This document shows positions 2,955 to 7,231 of a stretch of DNA of 7,427 bases, piece by piece (position 1 is the first letter of the stretch; every line of letters begins with the position of its first letter). The notes beneath the pieces were generated by a model. That model was not told where the DNA came from, did not search any database, and saw only the letters and a program-made list of their open reading frames with translations. The DNA is from Victivallales bacterium. GTDB lineage: Bacteria > Verrucomicrobiota > Lentisphaeria > Oligosphaerales > Oligosphaeraceae. The position numbers were made by a program, and so were the translations under genes. The stretch lies in NCBI GenBank assembly GCA_017963875.1, contig JAGCTA010000385.1:1-7427 (forward strand), written 5' to 3'.

Positions 2955-4391
2955 TCACGAAAATAGAGCATCCATTGTGATGGTGTTCTGAATGATACTT
3001 GAGTGTTTGTTCTGCTTGGGGCTGAATGTTGTAATCAACGTCGGATGGATGGCGTAGTCAGTCTTCGTTTCTGATTGCAAAATAGATATTTTTCGCCTGA
3101 TATCAGCCTCGTCATTTGCAGTCATTTCAAAAGGCGTCTCCGTAAACTTCATTTCGCAGACATTGATGATTCTGTCATTACGGACAAGGAGCATGTCAAT
3201 CTGCGCCTTACTCTCTGTTGCCTTGCTAAACCAAGGCTCTGCATAACAATGAACTCCAGATATTCCAAGGGCTTTTTTTATTTGCTCCAGATGGCTGAAG
3301 CAGAGATTCTCGAATGCGAATCCAGCCCATGATCGTATTTTAGAGGTCTGGAAATTGTCCTGCCAGAAATGCGGGTTTCCTGTAAAGTTTTTTTTCAAAA
3401 AATGCAAATGAAAGAGAGTGAAGCAATCGGTCAATTTGTATTTCTTCTCCCTTTGCTTTCCTGCAAAGGGAATGTATTCTGTAATGAAATCGCTGTTTTT
3501 CAGGGAGTCAATAATCTCAGTCAAATGGCTTCCACTTTCAAAGCCTGCTTTTTCGGCAATTTCGCCTCTGGAAAAGCCAAGGGAGCGAGTGGCCAAAAGA
3601 GAAACCACTTTGACATAATCCTGATGGTTCACAAACAGTGAGGCAAACATCCGTTCTAATTCACCTGCCAAAGGAGCATTTTTCTCGAAAAACAATGTAT
3701 CGACATTTTGAACAAAACTCATTCCCCTCTTTAGACCAGAAAGATAAAAGGGTATTCCGCCAAGAAGCATATATGACTGAATTTGGTCGAAGCGTGATAA
3801 CTCAATGCCGTATGACTTGTAATAATCCTGACAGTCAGCAAGGCTGAATGGTTCCAAATGCAATTCTCTGGTGATGCGACCGTAGAGGCCACCATGGTTG
3901 TTTATGAGTTTGTCCATCATCCAGGATGTCGCGGAACCACAGACGATCAGCATCAAGTCATCCTGAAAGGATCCCCATCCATTCCAGAAGTTTTCCAAAG
4001 CGGAGACAAATCCCGAGCGGGGTGTATCAAGCCAAGGCAACTCGTCAATGAAGACAACCTGACGACTTCCATCACGATGCTCTTCCAGAAGTTTTATCAG
4101 TGCATGAAACGCTTCAAACCAGTCGCTTAACTCATGGTCCAAATCCAGTCCATAATATCTGAGCGAATATCCGAAATTCTGCAATTGATTTCGCAGAAGA
4201 TTCGAGGCTTTCAAATCAGAAGCGGATATGCCAGCATGGCTGAAGGCAAATTGATTCTTGAAGAACTGACGAATCAAATAGGTCTTTCCCACACGGCGAC
4301 GACCGCAGACTGCTACAAACTCCGAACGATTCGAGGTCAATAGACGGGTCAGTTCTTCACATTCACGTTGTCGTCCAATGAGTTTGTCCAT
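2955..4391 (-). CDS. AAA ATPase with C-terminal PD-(D/E)XK-like domain (ATPase_2/DUF234 type)
   Basis: A 478-residue protein starting MDKLIGRQREC, as is usual for this family. Walker A is GRRRVGKT (residues 30-37, K36), Walker B is VVFIDELPW (D116, E117), and CGSATSWM (151-158) looks like a sensor 1 strand. A winged-helix-like stretch lies at about 265-325 (GFSRGEIAEKAGF). The C-terminal region (about 350-450) has a nuclease-fold signature: E361 in FAFENLC, D399 in AQID and E413-x-K415 in CEMKF. The gene appears full length and intact. Such ATPases are common as lone, multi-copy genes in host-associated anaerobes and archaea, with no agreed function; roles in DNA binding or in mobile or defence systems are speculation. 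The gene stands alone on the minus strand, has its own promoter region with repeated palindromes, and converges with the phosphoesterase gene without a visible terminator. Confidence 0.9.
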   Translation of the reverse strand: MDKLIGRQRECEELTRLLTSNRSEFVAVCGRRRVGKTYLIRQFFKNQFAFSHAGISASDLKASNLLRNQLQNFGYSLRYYGLDLDHELSDWFEAFHALIKLLEEHRDGSRQVVFIDELPWLDTPRSGFVSALENFWNGWGSFQDDLMLIVCGSATSWMMDKLINNHGGLYGRITRELHLEPFSLADCQDYYKSYGIELSRFDQIQSYMLLGGIPFYLSGLKRGMSFVQNVDTLFFEKNAPLAGELERMFASLFVNHQDYVKVVSLLATRSLGFSRGEIAEKAGFESGSHLTEIIDSLKNSDFITEYIPFAGKQREKKYKLTDCFTLFHLHFLKKNFTGNPHFWQDNFQTSKIRSWAGFAFENLCFSHLEQIKKALGISGVHCYAEPWFSKATESKAQIDMLLVRNDRIINVCEMKFTETPFEMTANDEADIRRKISILQSETKTDYAIHPTLITTFSPKQNKHSSIIQNTITMDALFS

Positions 4392-4402
4392 CGTTTTTTC
4401 TA

Positions 4403-4408
4403 CTCCTT
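4403..4408 (-). promoter_or_regulatory. Ribosome binding site of the ATPase gene
   Basis: On the minus strand AAGGAG lies 11 bases before the ATG at 4391. It is a strong Shine-Dalgarno match at a slightly long spacing and supports this start codon. Confidence 0.75.
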
Positions 4409-4414
4409 GAATAT

Positions 4415-4506
4415 ATTCTGGCTGAATAAATGGTATTTTATTTTGCCAAAATTAATGTTTTTTGTATTGTTTTGGCGAAATAGTATATATCTTATTCTGC
4501 CAAAAT
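4415..4506. promoter_or_regulatory. Array of four 13-bp near-palindromes, candidate operators
   Basis: On the + strand the copies are ATTCTGGCTGAAT (4415-4427), ATTTTGCCAAAAT (4440-4452, a perfect palindrome around its central base), GTTTTGGCGAAAT (4469-4481) and ATTCTGCCAAAAT (4494-4506). The three imperfect copies keep 5, 4 and 5 of 6 arm pairs, in that order. Their centres are 25, 29 and 25 bp apart. They overlie the predicted -35/-10 spacer, transcription start and leader of the ATPase gene, which fits an operator array for repression. The binding protein is unknown; self-binding by the ATPase through its winged-helix-like region is one possibility. Confidence 0.6.
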
Positions 4507-4510
4507 GCAA
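4482..4510 (-). promoter_or_regulatory. Predicted sigma-70-like promoter of the ATPase gene
   Basis: Read on the minus strand, TTGCAT (4510 to 4505) is followed after exactly 17 bases by TATACT (4487 to 4482), which is 4/6 and 5/6 to the bacterial consensus. Transcription would begin near 4475, giving a leader of about 84 bases. One 13-bp palindrome falls in the promoter spacer and overlaps the -35 edge, and a second covers the predicted start. This is a motif match only. Confidence 0.45.
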
Positions 4511-4517
4511 ATGGCGA

Positions 4518-4550
4518 ACATGAAAAATGTGTTTATTTCATGTGACATGA
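4518..4550. repeat. Overlapping inverted repeats between the two promoters
   Basis: ACATGAAA (4518-4525) is the exact reverse complement of TTTCATGT (4536-4543), with a 10-base spacer. The right half is shared with a second perfect odd palindrome, TCATGTGACATGA (4538-4550). The overlap means the two structures are mutually exclusive as cruciforms, but both could be read as protein sites. Confidence 0.45.
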
Positions 4551-4600
4551 GGTTCATTGTTCACTGGTGAGGCATTGCGATCAATCGGTGAGGGATTACG
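4548..4600 (+). repeat. Three direct repeats with TGAGG core at 20-21 bp spacing
   Basis: TGAGG begins at 4548, 4568 and 4589. The last two copies are longest: GGTGAGGCATTGCG (4566-4579) and GGTGAGGGATTACG (4587-4600) match at 12 of 14 bases, and similarity extends left through TCA(A). The first is weaker (TGAGG then TTCATTG). Spacing of two helical turns puts the repeats on one face of the DNA, just upstream of the TATAAT box at 4637, as expected for an activator or other repeated DNA-binding site. Confidence 0.45.
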
Positions 4601-4636
4601 TTTTTTTCTGCAAGGCAGGTTGAAAAAAAAGCCTTT

Positions 4637-4642
4637 TATAAT
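4637..4642 (+). promoter_or_regulatory. Candidate -10 box upstream of lptD
   Basis: A perfect TATAAT lies in an AT-rich context after an eight-A tract (4623-4630). No good -35 sits 16-18 bases upstream; TTGAAA at 4620 is only 11 bases away. If used, the promoter would probably need an activator, and transcription would start near 4649. The whole inverted-repeat element would then lie in a leader of about 260 bases. Confidence 0.35.
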
Positions 4643-4670
4643 ATGTTTTAAACTGTTTGCTCTCTTTGAT

Positions 4671-4703
4671 GGGACACATGGGACACATGGGACACATGGG
4701 ACA
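4671..4703 (+). repeat. Perfect 9-bp tandem repeat, left arm of the inverted element
   Basis: Three exact copies of GGGACACAT (4671-4679, 4680-4688, 4689-4697) are followed by a partial fourth, GGGACA. The unit length is a multiple of three, so the array gives Ser-His-Val repeats in a spurious minus-strand frame. Perfect identity suggests recent expansion or correction. Confidence 0.85.
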
Positions 4704-4819
4704 GGCGCGATGAATCGCAGGCGTTGCGGGTAGCGAAAGGGCAGTAGGGGAGCGTATGCTGCGGGTGTAGCAAGTGTTCTAAGGTGCTGTTTGGCACCAC
4801 AGATGCAATTGCAGAAAAT

Positions 4820-4853
4820 GGTCCTATCTGTCTCATCGGTCTCATTAGTCCCA
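4820..4853 (-). repeat. Diverged 9-bp-period array, right arm of the inverted element
   Basis: Read on the minus strand from 4852, the units are GGGACTAAT, GAGACCGAT, GAGACAGAT and AGGACC. They keep the 9-base period and the pattern RRGACNNAT of the left array, matching it at 24 of 33 bases. Several changes (G to A in the unit, read as G-U on RNA) preserve pairing with the left arm. Confidence 0.65.
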
Positions 4854-4895
4854 CAAAAGCCATTTTGAATCTAACCGAGAAACTTATCAGCCAAC

Positions 4896-4901
4896 AAAAG
4901 G
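4896..4901 (+). promoter_or_regulatory. Ribosome binding site deciding the lptD start
   Basis: AAAAGG lies 8 bases before the ATG at 4910. Together with the signal peptide that begins at this ATG, it favours 4910 over the upstream in-frame GTG at 4784. Confidence 0.65.
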
Positions 4902-4909
4902 TTTTAGAT

Positions 4910-7231
4910 ATGCGACATTGCCATTTATTCGCGTGCATCGTTCTGTTGCTGCTTTTTGCCATTGGGCTGCAAGGGCAGGAGCAAAAGCAGAAGGTGAAAC
5001 TGCCTGAAGCGGATGAACTGATTATTCGTTCAGAAAATGGTGAATATGACCTGAATGGAGACGTCATTCATCTCAAAAAAGGTCATAACCAGGTGGTATA
5101 TGGCCCCATTGAACTGAATGCACAGGAAATGTGGTTCAATCAGCAAACCTCGGAGTTCAAGGCGTCAGGCGATGTCGTCGTCAAACTTGATGATGGAACT
5201 AGTTGGGCGTCGCAGAATGTCAACGGAAACCTCAATGCCAAGGAATTGAATTTTGACGCGTATGGCTTTGACGGGAAGGTCTGGCATAGCGGCGGTGAAG
5301 GCGGACACGCCTTGCCTAATGGCGAAAAGCATCTTGACCATGCCTGGCTCACGACGTGCGATTGCTATCCGCCACATTACAGGGTCTGTGCATCTGACAT
5401 GACGCATTATCCAGACAACACGTTTTCTGCTAAACATCTCATAATTAAACTTGGAGTTGTGCCTGTTTTCTATTTTCCATACGCATGGGGCACGACTGAC
5501 AATTCCGCGGGGCTGATATTCAAGCCAGGCTATTCGGGAAAAAAAGGCGCTTATCTCAGGCTGGGAAGGATCTGGCAACTGCAAGGCGATGACAACTATA
5601 CTCAATTTTACACGGATTTGATGTCAAAACGAGGCGTTGCACTCGGACATGACACTGAGTGGAAATCGGATCGCCAGCAGGTCAGCGTCAATCTTTATGG
5701 CCTTTTGGACAGAGACCCGCCTGAAACGGAAAGAGGGTACAACCGACGATTTGACGAAGAGCATGACAGGTTTCGCATTGCAACATATTATCGTTATGAT
5801 GTTTCAGAAACATCAGCAATTCGCCTCAATGTCGATTACATGAGCGATATTGATATGCTTGAAGATTGGTTCAAGCATGATTATCGGCAGATTCTTCAAA
5901 CAAAATCCTATCTTAACTGGACGACTGATGGCGACTTCTATAATTTTACCGTGAATGTCCGCCCGCGAATCAATGAATTCTACACGGTTGTGGAGACGCT
6001 TCCTGAGGTTCGTCTTGATATTCCACGAATATCTCTAGGGGAATTGCCGCTTGAATACCAGAGCAGTACGTCATTTGGCTATTATTCAATGAAGTGGCGG
6101 AATTTCTACCGTCATCGTTGGGAAGTGATTACAGATGATGAATACGATTCGGAGGTCCACCGTGACCCAGCCGATTATCAGGCCTTCCGTGCGGATACCG
6201 TTCATTTTATGTATCTTCCGATGGCATTGGATGACTATGTCAAGTTCATCCCCCGTGCGGGATTCCGTGCGACCTATTATTCGAAAACGAGCAAGGCGAG
6301 AATCCGCCGCGAGGATATTGCCGCCATGATTGATGTCGATAATCCAGACCATGTTTACAACAGCACGCCAATCAGGCAATACGATAATGATGGCGGGGAT
6401 GTGCTTCGTACGGCGTTTGAAATCGGCGGTGAACTGAAGAACAGGATGTACAGTGACTGGGTTGATATGAATCTGGATTTCATTGATGGGCATGGAATCA
6501 GGCATGTGGTGGAACCATACGTCAATTATACGTATGCGCATGATCCGTCGCACGATTGCGACCATCTTTATTTCTTTGATGAAATCGATCGGCTGGAACG
6601 TCAGCATTTTATTCGACTGGGGGTTGACCAGTTGTGGCAGACGCGTATCGATGGACGTGTAAACACCATCGCACGCTGGCAGAACTATGTCGATTTCCAC
6701 TTTGACCGTGGAGAGGAAAGCGGCCGTCATCCAGGGGATTATGGTTCAAGGTTGGATATTTATCCATGTGAATGGCTGACGTTCTGGAGCGCAATCCTGC
6801 ATGATATCGGCGAGGGGGATATCCAGTGCGGTGAAACGGGCTTCCGTTATGGGAAAATACATGACTTCAATCTTTCGTGCAGGTATGTCTATCGTAATGA
6901 CCACATGTCCCGCAGTGTTTATTCTATGGGCTCGACCCTCGTTGATTTAACAGGCGAGAGTTCCTATTACAAGAAATACTTCGAGACGGCGGATACGATC
7001 AATGTCACATTCCATGTGCCCTTGCTTGATGACGAGAAGATGTCCTTTGATGTTGAAGCGGAATATGATTTTGAGAAGAATACTCTTTCTGAACACAAGT
7101 ATATAATCAACAAAGACCTGCATTGTTGGACAATGTCTTTCGGTGTTGGCTGGGACAATGGCGATTTCGAGGCCATGATTCTGTTCAGGCTGAAGGCCTT
7201 CCCGAACGTCAAGGTCGATTTGAATATTTAA
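4910..7231 (+). CDS. lptD: LPS-assembly protein LptD (OstA/Imp family outer-membrane barrel)
   Basis: A 773-residue protein, close to the usual LptD length (E. coli 784). LptD is the outer-membrane beta-barrel that, with LptE, inserts lipopolysaccharide into the outer leaflet. Residues 1-22 form a signal peptide (hydrophobic core CIVLLLLFAIG, likely cleavage after LQG). Residues about 30-120 are an OstA/LptA-like beta-jellyroll (DELIIRSENGEYDLNGDVI, then ELNAQEMWFN and FKASGDVVVK). The family junction is clear: TTCDCY (148-153), a long strand ending GVVPVFYFPYA (182-192), then GLIFKPGYS and MSKRGVALGHDTEW. The rest is an alternating aromatic and polar barrel, including the family-like RHVVEPYVNYTY (531-542). 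Mature cysteines are at 150, 152, 160, 550, 620, 640, 657 and 739, so N- to C-terminal disulfides are possible, though not in the E. coli arrangement. An in-frame GTG at 4784 adds 42 residues without a signal peptide and is unlikely. No lptE, lptA or surA-like gene is visible nearby. Confidence 0.87.
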   Translation: MRHCHLFACIVLLLLFAIGLQGQEQKQKVKLPEADELIIRSENGEYDLNGDVIHLKKGHNQVVYGPIELNAQEMWFNQQTSEFKASGDVVVKLDDGTSWASQNVNGNLNAKELNFDAYGFDGKVWHSGGEGGHALPNGEKHLDHAWLTTCDCYPPHYRVCASDMTHYPDNTFSAKHLIIKLGVVPVFYFPYAWGTTDNSAGLIFKPGYSGKKGAYLRLGRIWQLQGDDNYTQFYTDLMSKRGVALGHDTEWKSDRQQVSVNLYGLLDRDPPETERGYNRRFDEEHDRFRIATYYRYDVSETSAIRLNVDYMSDIDMLEDWFKHDYRQILQTKSYLNWTTDGDFYNFTVNVRPRINEFYTVVETLPEVRLDIPRISLGELPLEYQSSTSFGYYSMKWRNFYRHRWEVITDDEYDSEVHRDPADYQAFRADTVHFMYLPMALDDYVKFIPRAGFRATYYSKTSKARIRREDIAAMIDVDNPDHVYNSTPIRQYDNDGGDVLRTAFEIGGELKNRMYSDWVDMNLDFIDGHGIRHVVEPYVNYTYAHDPSHDCDHLYFFDEIDRLERQHFIRLGVDQLWQTRIDGRVNTIARWQNYVDFHFDRGEESGRHPGDYGSRLDIYPCEWLTFWSAILHDIGEGDIQCGETGFRYGKIHDFNLSCRYVYRNDHMSRSVYSMGSTLVDLTGESSYYKKYFETADTINVTFHVPLLDDEKMSFDVEAEYDFEKNTLSEHKYIINKDLHCWTMSFGVGWDNGDFEAMILFRLKAFPNVKVDLNI

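What the first reader, a model, noticed from the sequence alone, without database searches (positions are those of the whole stretch)
4664..4859. A 196-base hairpin element built from two opposed 9-bp-period arrays in the lptD leader
The tandem GGGACACAT array (4671-4703) and a diverged array on the opposite strand (4820-4853) form the two arms of one long stem: 32 of 39 positions pair, with mismatches in small symmetric loops and three G-U pairs. Three smaller hairpins sit inside. Mismatches falling at the same two positions of each 9-mer, while the GGGAC core and AT always pair, look like selection for stem structure. This may be a structured leader or small RNA controlling lptD, or a MITE-like palindromic family. 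I do not recognise it as a described RNA.
Basis: partly seen in the sequence, partly recalled or inferred. Interest (0 to 1): 0.75.

Follow-up and report, generated by a model that had tools for sequence, protein, structure and literature searches.

The report
Dispersed palindromic 9-bp repeat element
The hairpin upstream of lptD is real, but it looks like one copy of a scattered family of mirror-image repeats built from a 9-letter unit that recurs between genes in related bacterial genomes, not a dedicated switch for lptD; what the family does is unknown.

Summary
In detail: four TGGGACNNN units (4670-4705, +) face four TRRGACNNN units (4818-4853, -) and form 34 stem pairs, 3 of them G-U; RNA z -3.1, 0 of 200 shuffles as good.

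Relatives change the reading. TGGGACNNATGGGACNNATGGGAC occurs in 25 of 197 genomes of the class, up to 89 matches per genome; the reversed control gives 0. Of 99 array clusters cut out (12 of those 25 genomes, plus the window), 32 have arrays on both strands, in 28 adjacent pairs as GGGAC..GTCCC, 4 the other way. They are mostly intergenic: 34 of 99 lie inside an ORF of 150 aa or more, against 156 of 166 control stretches. None of 27 lptD upstream regions holds a dimer, so a conserved lptD leader is not supported.

Arm spacers match within loci in G047 but not in G032, so selection for the stem is not shown in general. In G042, 4 of 4 copies examined have GTAATG..CATTAC ends and 8-9-bp direct repeats: that subfamily moved like a MITE. 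The window copy shows no such ends. RAYT link not supported (0 of 30 loci); no Rfam match.

Verdict: new variant of a known kind, dispersed palindromic repeats.

The parts
4670..4705 (+). left array: four 9-mers TGGGACNNN (ACA, ACA, ACA, AGG)
   Evidence: TRF (4669-4703, 100% matches); unit register
4818..4853 (-). right array on the opposite strand: TGGGACTAA, TGAGACCGA, TGAGACAGA, TAGGACCAT
   Evidence: TRF row 4826-4845
4660..4859 (+). stem-loop formed by the two arrays: 34 pairs between 4660-4702 and 4821-4859, 3 G-U
4707..4806 (+). apical part: 4-bp hairpin 4707-4718 and an irregular arm 4721-4806 in the minimum-energy structure
4802..4810 (+). GATGCAATT beside the right arm; the same 9-mer (either strand) is in 4 of 21 G047 clusters and in 0 of 44,881 bases of their flanks
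   Evidence: first noticed by eye
4392..4909 (.). gap between two divergently oriented genes that holds the element
   Evidence: ORFs, Pfam
4910..7231 (+). lptD (773 aa); starts about 50 bases after the stem
   Evidence: Pfam LptD; 128 homologues
2955..4391 (-). ATPase_2/AAA_14 ATPase gene, divergent neighbour
   Evidence: Pfam

Best explanation
The feature is one copy of a dispersed, mostly intergenic, imperfectly palindromic repeat family of Lentisphaeria. Its arms are tandem arrays of a 9-bp unit TGGGACNNA in inverted orientation around a short loop, usually as GGGAC..loop..GTCCC. How it most likely works: copies are seeded into gaps between genes as small non-autonomous mobile DNA (shown for one subfamily, in G042), then grow, shrink and drift in place by slippage and, in some genomes, by hairpin-templated correction that keeps the two arms alike (inferred). 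In the window one such copy lies between two divergent genes; an lptD transcript that starts upstream of it would carry a strong 34-pair hairpin, so a local effect on lptD is possible but would be a by-product of position (inferred). What the TGGGAC core is for is not established.
For: Array pattern in 25 of 197 genomes of the class, 0 reversed-control matches; in 13 of 288 genomes of the phylum, by handle number 9 of 98 in the class set and 4 of 190 others. Opposed arrays in 32 of 99 clusters; adjacent opposed pairs 28 to 4 in polarity. Folding z <= -3 in 28 of 29 paired and 11 of 57 single clusters, against 0 of 57 and 4 of 113 windows 600 bp away. Mostly intergenic: 34 of 99 clusters inside an ORF of 150 aa or more, 15 with 60 aa before and 30 after, against 156 of 166 stretches 700 bp away. 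No fixed gene context: 25 divergent, 41 co-directional, 11 convergent among 77 clusters with both neighbours called. Mobility in G042: 4 of 4 copies examined have GTAATG..CATTAC ends and an 8- or 9-bp direct repeat; three carry the arrays. Turnover in place: orthologues L128/L262. Arms alike within loci in G047. GATGCAATT links the window copy to G047 copies.
Against: The window copy has no convincing duplication or terminal repeat: score 11, the control median; of 29 elements scored only L244 and L248 (both G042) passed the control maximum of 15. That scan also missed L246, whose ends one search shows, so it has false negatives. Copies can persist at a site: L019/L020 and L120/L261 hold arrays at matching places in two genomes, so current mobility is not shown. 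The whole-element DNA search gave only matches of 26-48 bases to array parts, in 9 of 197 genomes. G032 arms do not match in spacers, and in L262 one arm grew alone. 57 of 86 clusters with a folding value are single arrays, 46 with z above -3. The window's own genome is not held, so its copy number is unknown.
Confidence: 0.62

Rival explanations
1. Binding-site array: TGGGACNNA is the recognition site of a DNA-binding protein (nucleoid, regulator or replication factor); opposed arrays are clustered sites and the hairpin is incidental.
For: NN spacer varies by locus and genome while the core recurs (the core is demanded by the pattern, but the reversed control is 0). Single arrays are common. 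G032 arms do not match in spacers. In three viral contigs tested, GGGACACAT arrays lie next to genes with RepB_primase/PriCT_1, DUF927+DUF3854 or D5_N domains (primase-related by recall).
Against: No candidate protein was found or searched for. No gene context shared by the copies. The exact pattern is absent from 172 of 197 genomes of the class.
Confidence: 0.2
2. Structured RNA leader or attenuator of lptD: the lptD transcript folds into the long hairpin, which tunes LptD synthesis.
For: z -3.09; the three wobbles are G-U on the lptD-sense strand and that strand folds better, -89.4 against -72.5; the stem ends about 50 bases before the start codon.
Against: 0 of 27 lptD upstream regions in relatives hold a dimer. 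Copies lie by many different genes. In 12 elements between co-directional genes the sense strand folds better in 8 and worse in 4 (contexts, energies). No Rfam match. No transcript data.
Confidence: 0.1
3. Plain minisatellite: slippage in intergenic DNA, no spread between sites and no function; inverted partners arise by local inversion.
For: Locus-specific homogenised units; fast turnover between the orthologues L128 and L262.
Against: Same core across loci and genomes with 0 reversed controls; polarity 28 to 4 where local inversion would give equal numbers; target duplications in G042.
Confidence: 0.08

Closest known systems
MITEs (miniature inverted-repeat transposable elements), here with IS66-like ends
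   Same: G042 copies: 94-317 bp, inverted ends GTAATG.., 8-9-bp direct repeats, dispersed. IS66 copies in G001 show GTAAGCG ends with an 8-bp duplication in 2 of 8 IS66 loci examined (L344, L347).
   Different: The window copy and the other non-G042 elements scored show no such ends. The IS66 transposase locus found in G042 shows no G042-type end, so the mobilising enzyme is not identified.
REP / BIME / REPIN repeats with RAYT transposases (PMC3733652, passages read)
   Same: Intergenic, dispersed, palindromic, many copies per genome.
   Different: REPs are 20-40 bp, most tagged GTAG or CGTC at one end, and often associated with IS200/IS605-type genes; here arms are 9-bp tandem arrays, and 0 of 30 Y1_Tnp loci examined carry the unit.
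STAR elements of staphylococci (PMC3532100, abstract and Background read)
   Same: GC-rich short repeats, intergenic, many loci, locus-specific sequence, expand and contract, function unknown.
   Different: 14-bp unit with spacers of at least 40 bp; described as direct repeats, not inverted array pairs.
STRR (short tandemly repeated repetitive) sequences of cyanobacteria (recalled; only a search listing seen)
   Same: Short-unit tandem arrays scattered through a genome.
   Different: Recalled as 7-bp units without an inverted partner; not compared here.

Membership tests
MITE (G042 subfamily) | terminal inverted repeats at the element ends | tested here: met
   GTAATG..CATTAC with the CAGTCTTCTGTAGTGC motif near at least one end in L244, L246, L248, L337
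MITE (G042 subfamily) | target-site duplication | tested here: met
   4 of 4 copies examined: 8 bp in L244, L248, L337, 9 bp in L246
MITE (window copy itself) | terminal inverted repeats plus target duplication | tested here: not met
   best score 11, the control median; the scan has false negatives (missed L246)
REP/REPIN | association with a RAYT (Y1_Tnp) gene | tested here: not met
   0 of 30 loci examined, of 42 Y1_Tnp matches in 8 genomes, carry TGGGACNNNTGGGAC within the fetched flanks; one Y1_Tnp (G047:C547:24-365) lies about 3 kb from an array on the same contig
REP/REPIN | 20-40-bp palindrome with an unpaired GTAG or CGTC tag | tested here: not met
   arms are 9-bp arrays; the stem-loop of the window copy spans 200 bp
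STAR element | 14-bp unit T(G/A/T)TGTTG(G/T)GGCCC(C/A) | tested here: not met
   unit is TGGGACNNA
Known RNA family (Rfam 15) | covariance-model match at gathering score | tested here: not met
   0 matches in the window
Conserved lptD leader | present upstream of lptD in relatives | tested here: not met
   0 of 27 regions with a dimer in up to 800 bp; six of them had only 231-417 bp
Structured RNA under selection | covariation of variable stem positions | tested here: inconclusive
   spacer matching above swapped arms in G047, not in G032; window 0.33

The most novel reading that the evidence does not exclude
TGGGACNNA is the site of an unrecognised DNA- or RNA-binding system of Lentisphaeria: opposed site arrays in many intergenic regions of a genome are read by one protein (chromosome organiser, RNA-binding regulator, or a replication protein of a kind that phages also use at origins), and the palindrome is the working geometry.
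Probability: 0.15. Interest if true: 0.78.

Novelty: new variant of a known kind. Interest (0 to 1): 0.5.

Why it matters
Searches of the held open library for the array strings, Lentisphaerae with GGGAC, Lentisphaerae with intergenic palindromic tandem repeats and Oligosphaera ethanolica with repeats found no description of this family; subscription papers are not held. With up to 89 matches in one genome of a little-studied class, and one subfamily with target duplications, it is a tractable case of how bacterial palindromic repeats start, spread and keep their two arms alike. The contrast between G047 and G032 makes 'selection on the stem' against 'template-switch repair' testable. It also warns against reading a strong hairpin in one leader as a riboregulator before looking for copies elsewhere.

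Tried and rejected
RAYT/REP link: Y1_Tnp searched in 8 genomes, 42 matches in 7 of them; 30 loci examined, none with the unit. One Y1_Tnp lies about 3 kb from an array on G047:C547. Not supported.

General transposon ends: TSD plus TIR score for 29 of the 32 elements with both strands, against swapped flanks; only L244 and L248 of G042 exceeded the control maximum of 15; L246, which has ends, was missed. In L217 (G047) GTAATGGGGC..GCCCCATTAC flank the array by eye without a duplication.

Promoter-type placement: in G047 28 of 32 neighbouring gene ends are 5' ends and 8 of 11 complete contexts are divergent, but divergent gaps make up 5089 of 9735 intergenic bases in 95 kb of that genome, so no clear preference. 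In G032 3' ends lie at a median 10 bases, contexts mixed.

Gene calls: all are crude ORF calls of mine. The first caller (ORFs of 70 aa or more) put 50 of 98 clusters in overlap with an ORF; the second trims genes at the element and cannot see overlap; one search is the controlled count. L117 is probably inside a gene (706-aa ORF, 47 aa after the array). In one search the contigs were chosen because they hold arrays: 0 of 17 dimers in ORFs in G047, 1 of 14 in G032.

IS66 as driver in G042: one IS66 match there, without G042-type ends. Not shown.

Literature: nine searches; six without a description (one search showed 8 of 4,102), three for comparators.

Limits: clusters come from places that the searches listed, from 12 of the 25 array-bearing genomes of the class; G052 (34 matches) and others were not sampled. 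L120 and L126 did not meet the chain rule; L132 and L133 were fetched and not used. Only '+-' pairs entered the spacer test; G022 had 2 pairs (0.58 against 0.50), G001, G002, G003, G043 one each (1.00, 0.50, 0.75, 0.50), and G042's four pairs all have GT spacers and say nothing. Energies are biased by selection; one search is the controlled version (86 of 99 clusters; the others lie too near a contig end or hold N). The looser pattern had reversed-control matches (14 in G001, 26 in G002); the stricter one none. One search printed wrong + strand positions for the window's dimers; one search gives 4670, 4679, 4688.

Full report
What is there. LptD of the window (4910-7231) has 128 homologues; of the 11 listed with an organism name, 9 are Victivallales, Lentisphaeria or Lentisphaerae. 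The element lies in the 518-bp gap 4392-4909 between a divergent ATPase_2 gene and lptD. Four TGGGACNNN units on the + strand (4670-4705) face four TRRGACNNN units on the - strand (4818-4853). They pair at 34 positions, 3 of them G-U. The z-score is -3.09, 0 of 200 shuffles as good, and the arms alone beat all 1000 right-arm shuffles.

Is it specific to lptD? No. Of 28 lptD loci considered, 27 had at least 200 bp upstream; none has two units in up to 800 bp (six had only 231-417 bp). The nearest arrays lie about 2.4 kb (L019, Oligosphaera ethanolica) and 2.3 kb (L020) upstream of lptD, and 1.3 kb downstream of its end in L027.

A family. TGGGACNNATGGGACNNATGGGAC matches 25 of 197 genomes of the class, up to 89 times in a genome, with no reversed-control match. 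In a phylum sample it matches 13 of 288, by handle number 9 of 98 in the class set and 4 of 190 others. I cut out 99 clusters, the window's included. 32 have arrays on both strands; 28 adjacent opposed pairs have GGGAC left and GTCCC right, 4 the other way. Energies agree: z <= -3 in 28 of 29 paired and 11 of 57 single clusters, against 0 of 57 and 4 of 113 shifted windows. Against the reading: 67 of 99 clusters have no partner by my rule.

Place. Mostly intergenic: 34 of 99 clusters lie wholly inside an ORF of 150 aa or more (15 with at least 60 aa before and 30 after), against 156 of 166 stretches 700 bp away. Some, such as L117, are probably inside genes. Gene orientation is not fixed: 25 divergent, 41 co-directional, 11 convergent.

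Stem selection. The variable spacer is the fairer test. In G047 arms of one locus match at 0.83 against 0.59 for swapped arms (9 pairs, 0 of 1000); in G032 0.47 against 0.53 (8 pairs, 816 of 1000 as high); in the window 0.33. In the orthologues L128 (G001) and L262 (G043) the matches on the two sides are 90.6% over 1538 bp and 97.0% over 1485 bp, while the arrays between are rewritten and one arm of L262 is longer. L120/L261 keep more of the inner part. In 12 elements between co-directional genes the sense strand folds better in 8. So arms are alike in some genomes, by selection or by template switching, and not in others.

Mobility. In G042 four of four copies examined have GTAATG..CATTAC ends and direct repeats TCAAAAAG, GTCCTTTTG, CATTTGCC and ACGCAGTA; three carry the arrays, one is a 94-bp short form. 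Other end matches in G042 were one-sided, many at contig ends. GTAA ends and 8-bp duplications fit IS66 (recalled; two of eight IS66 loci examined show GTAAGCG ends with 8-bp duplications). Other genomes and the window show no such ends, though that scan missed one true case, and the enzyme is not identified. Arrays at matching places in two genomes (L019/L020, L120/L261) show that copies can stay put.

Link of the window copy. GATGCAATT beside its right arm (4802-4810) is found, on either strand, in 4 of 21 G047 clusters and in 0 of 44,881 bases of their flanks; in 0 of 77 clusters of the other genomes, and once in 182,210 bases of other flanks. This suggests a shared subfamily. It was noticed by eye first, so it is a lead, not a test.

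What is known. Rfam: none. REP/RAYT: size, tag and association not met. STAR elements are the nearest in behaviour but have another unit and are described as direct repeats. No paper on this family was found; this is a weak negative.

Verdict. A dispersed, mostly intergenic, palindromic minisatellite family with one subfamily shown to carry transposition marks: a new variant of a known kind. Shown: the family, its polarity, its preference for gaps between genes, target duplications in G042, turnover at L128/L262. Inferred: mobility of the window copy, slippage and template switching, any effect on lptD.

Noticed in passing
L001-L006 (IMG/VR), e.g. L003:4302-4530, L005:5267-5420, L004:2573-2760: Viral contigs carry GGGACACAT arrays, in 5 of 6 with three-unit GGGAC arrays on both strands; the neighbouring large genes tested in L003, L004 and L005 have RepB_primase/PriCT_1, D5_N and DUF927+DUF3854 domains. 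They look like replication-origin iterons; relation to the chromosomal arrays unknown.
   Followed up: partly
68 viral stretches: TGGGACNNA arrays also occur in viral contigs; 16 of 68 have an opposite dimer within 200 bp of the first array. Several others look like coding repeats by eye (untested).
   Followed up: partly
window 4416-4452 and 4470-4506: A 37-bp direct repeat, 73% identical, ending in GCCAAAAT, between the ATPase start and the element.
   Followed up: no
L164 and L267 (same place), L172, L239, L242: Elements of the '-+' polarity in G021, G022 and G059 share GC-rich flanks (GGCGGCGCG.., GCGCGCCGCC) around the arrays, apparently a second subfamily (by eye).
   Followed up: no
L341:75-180 (G021): An opposed array pair lies about 1.3 kb from an IS66 transposase match (1501-2328).
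   Followed up: no
L122, L123: Intergenic regions of G001 also hold other short-unit arrays next to the TGGGAC arrays (GATCGGTCT-like, GGGTTGCCTGGCCTGC).
   Followed up: no
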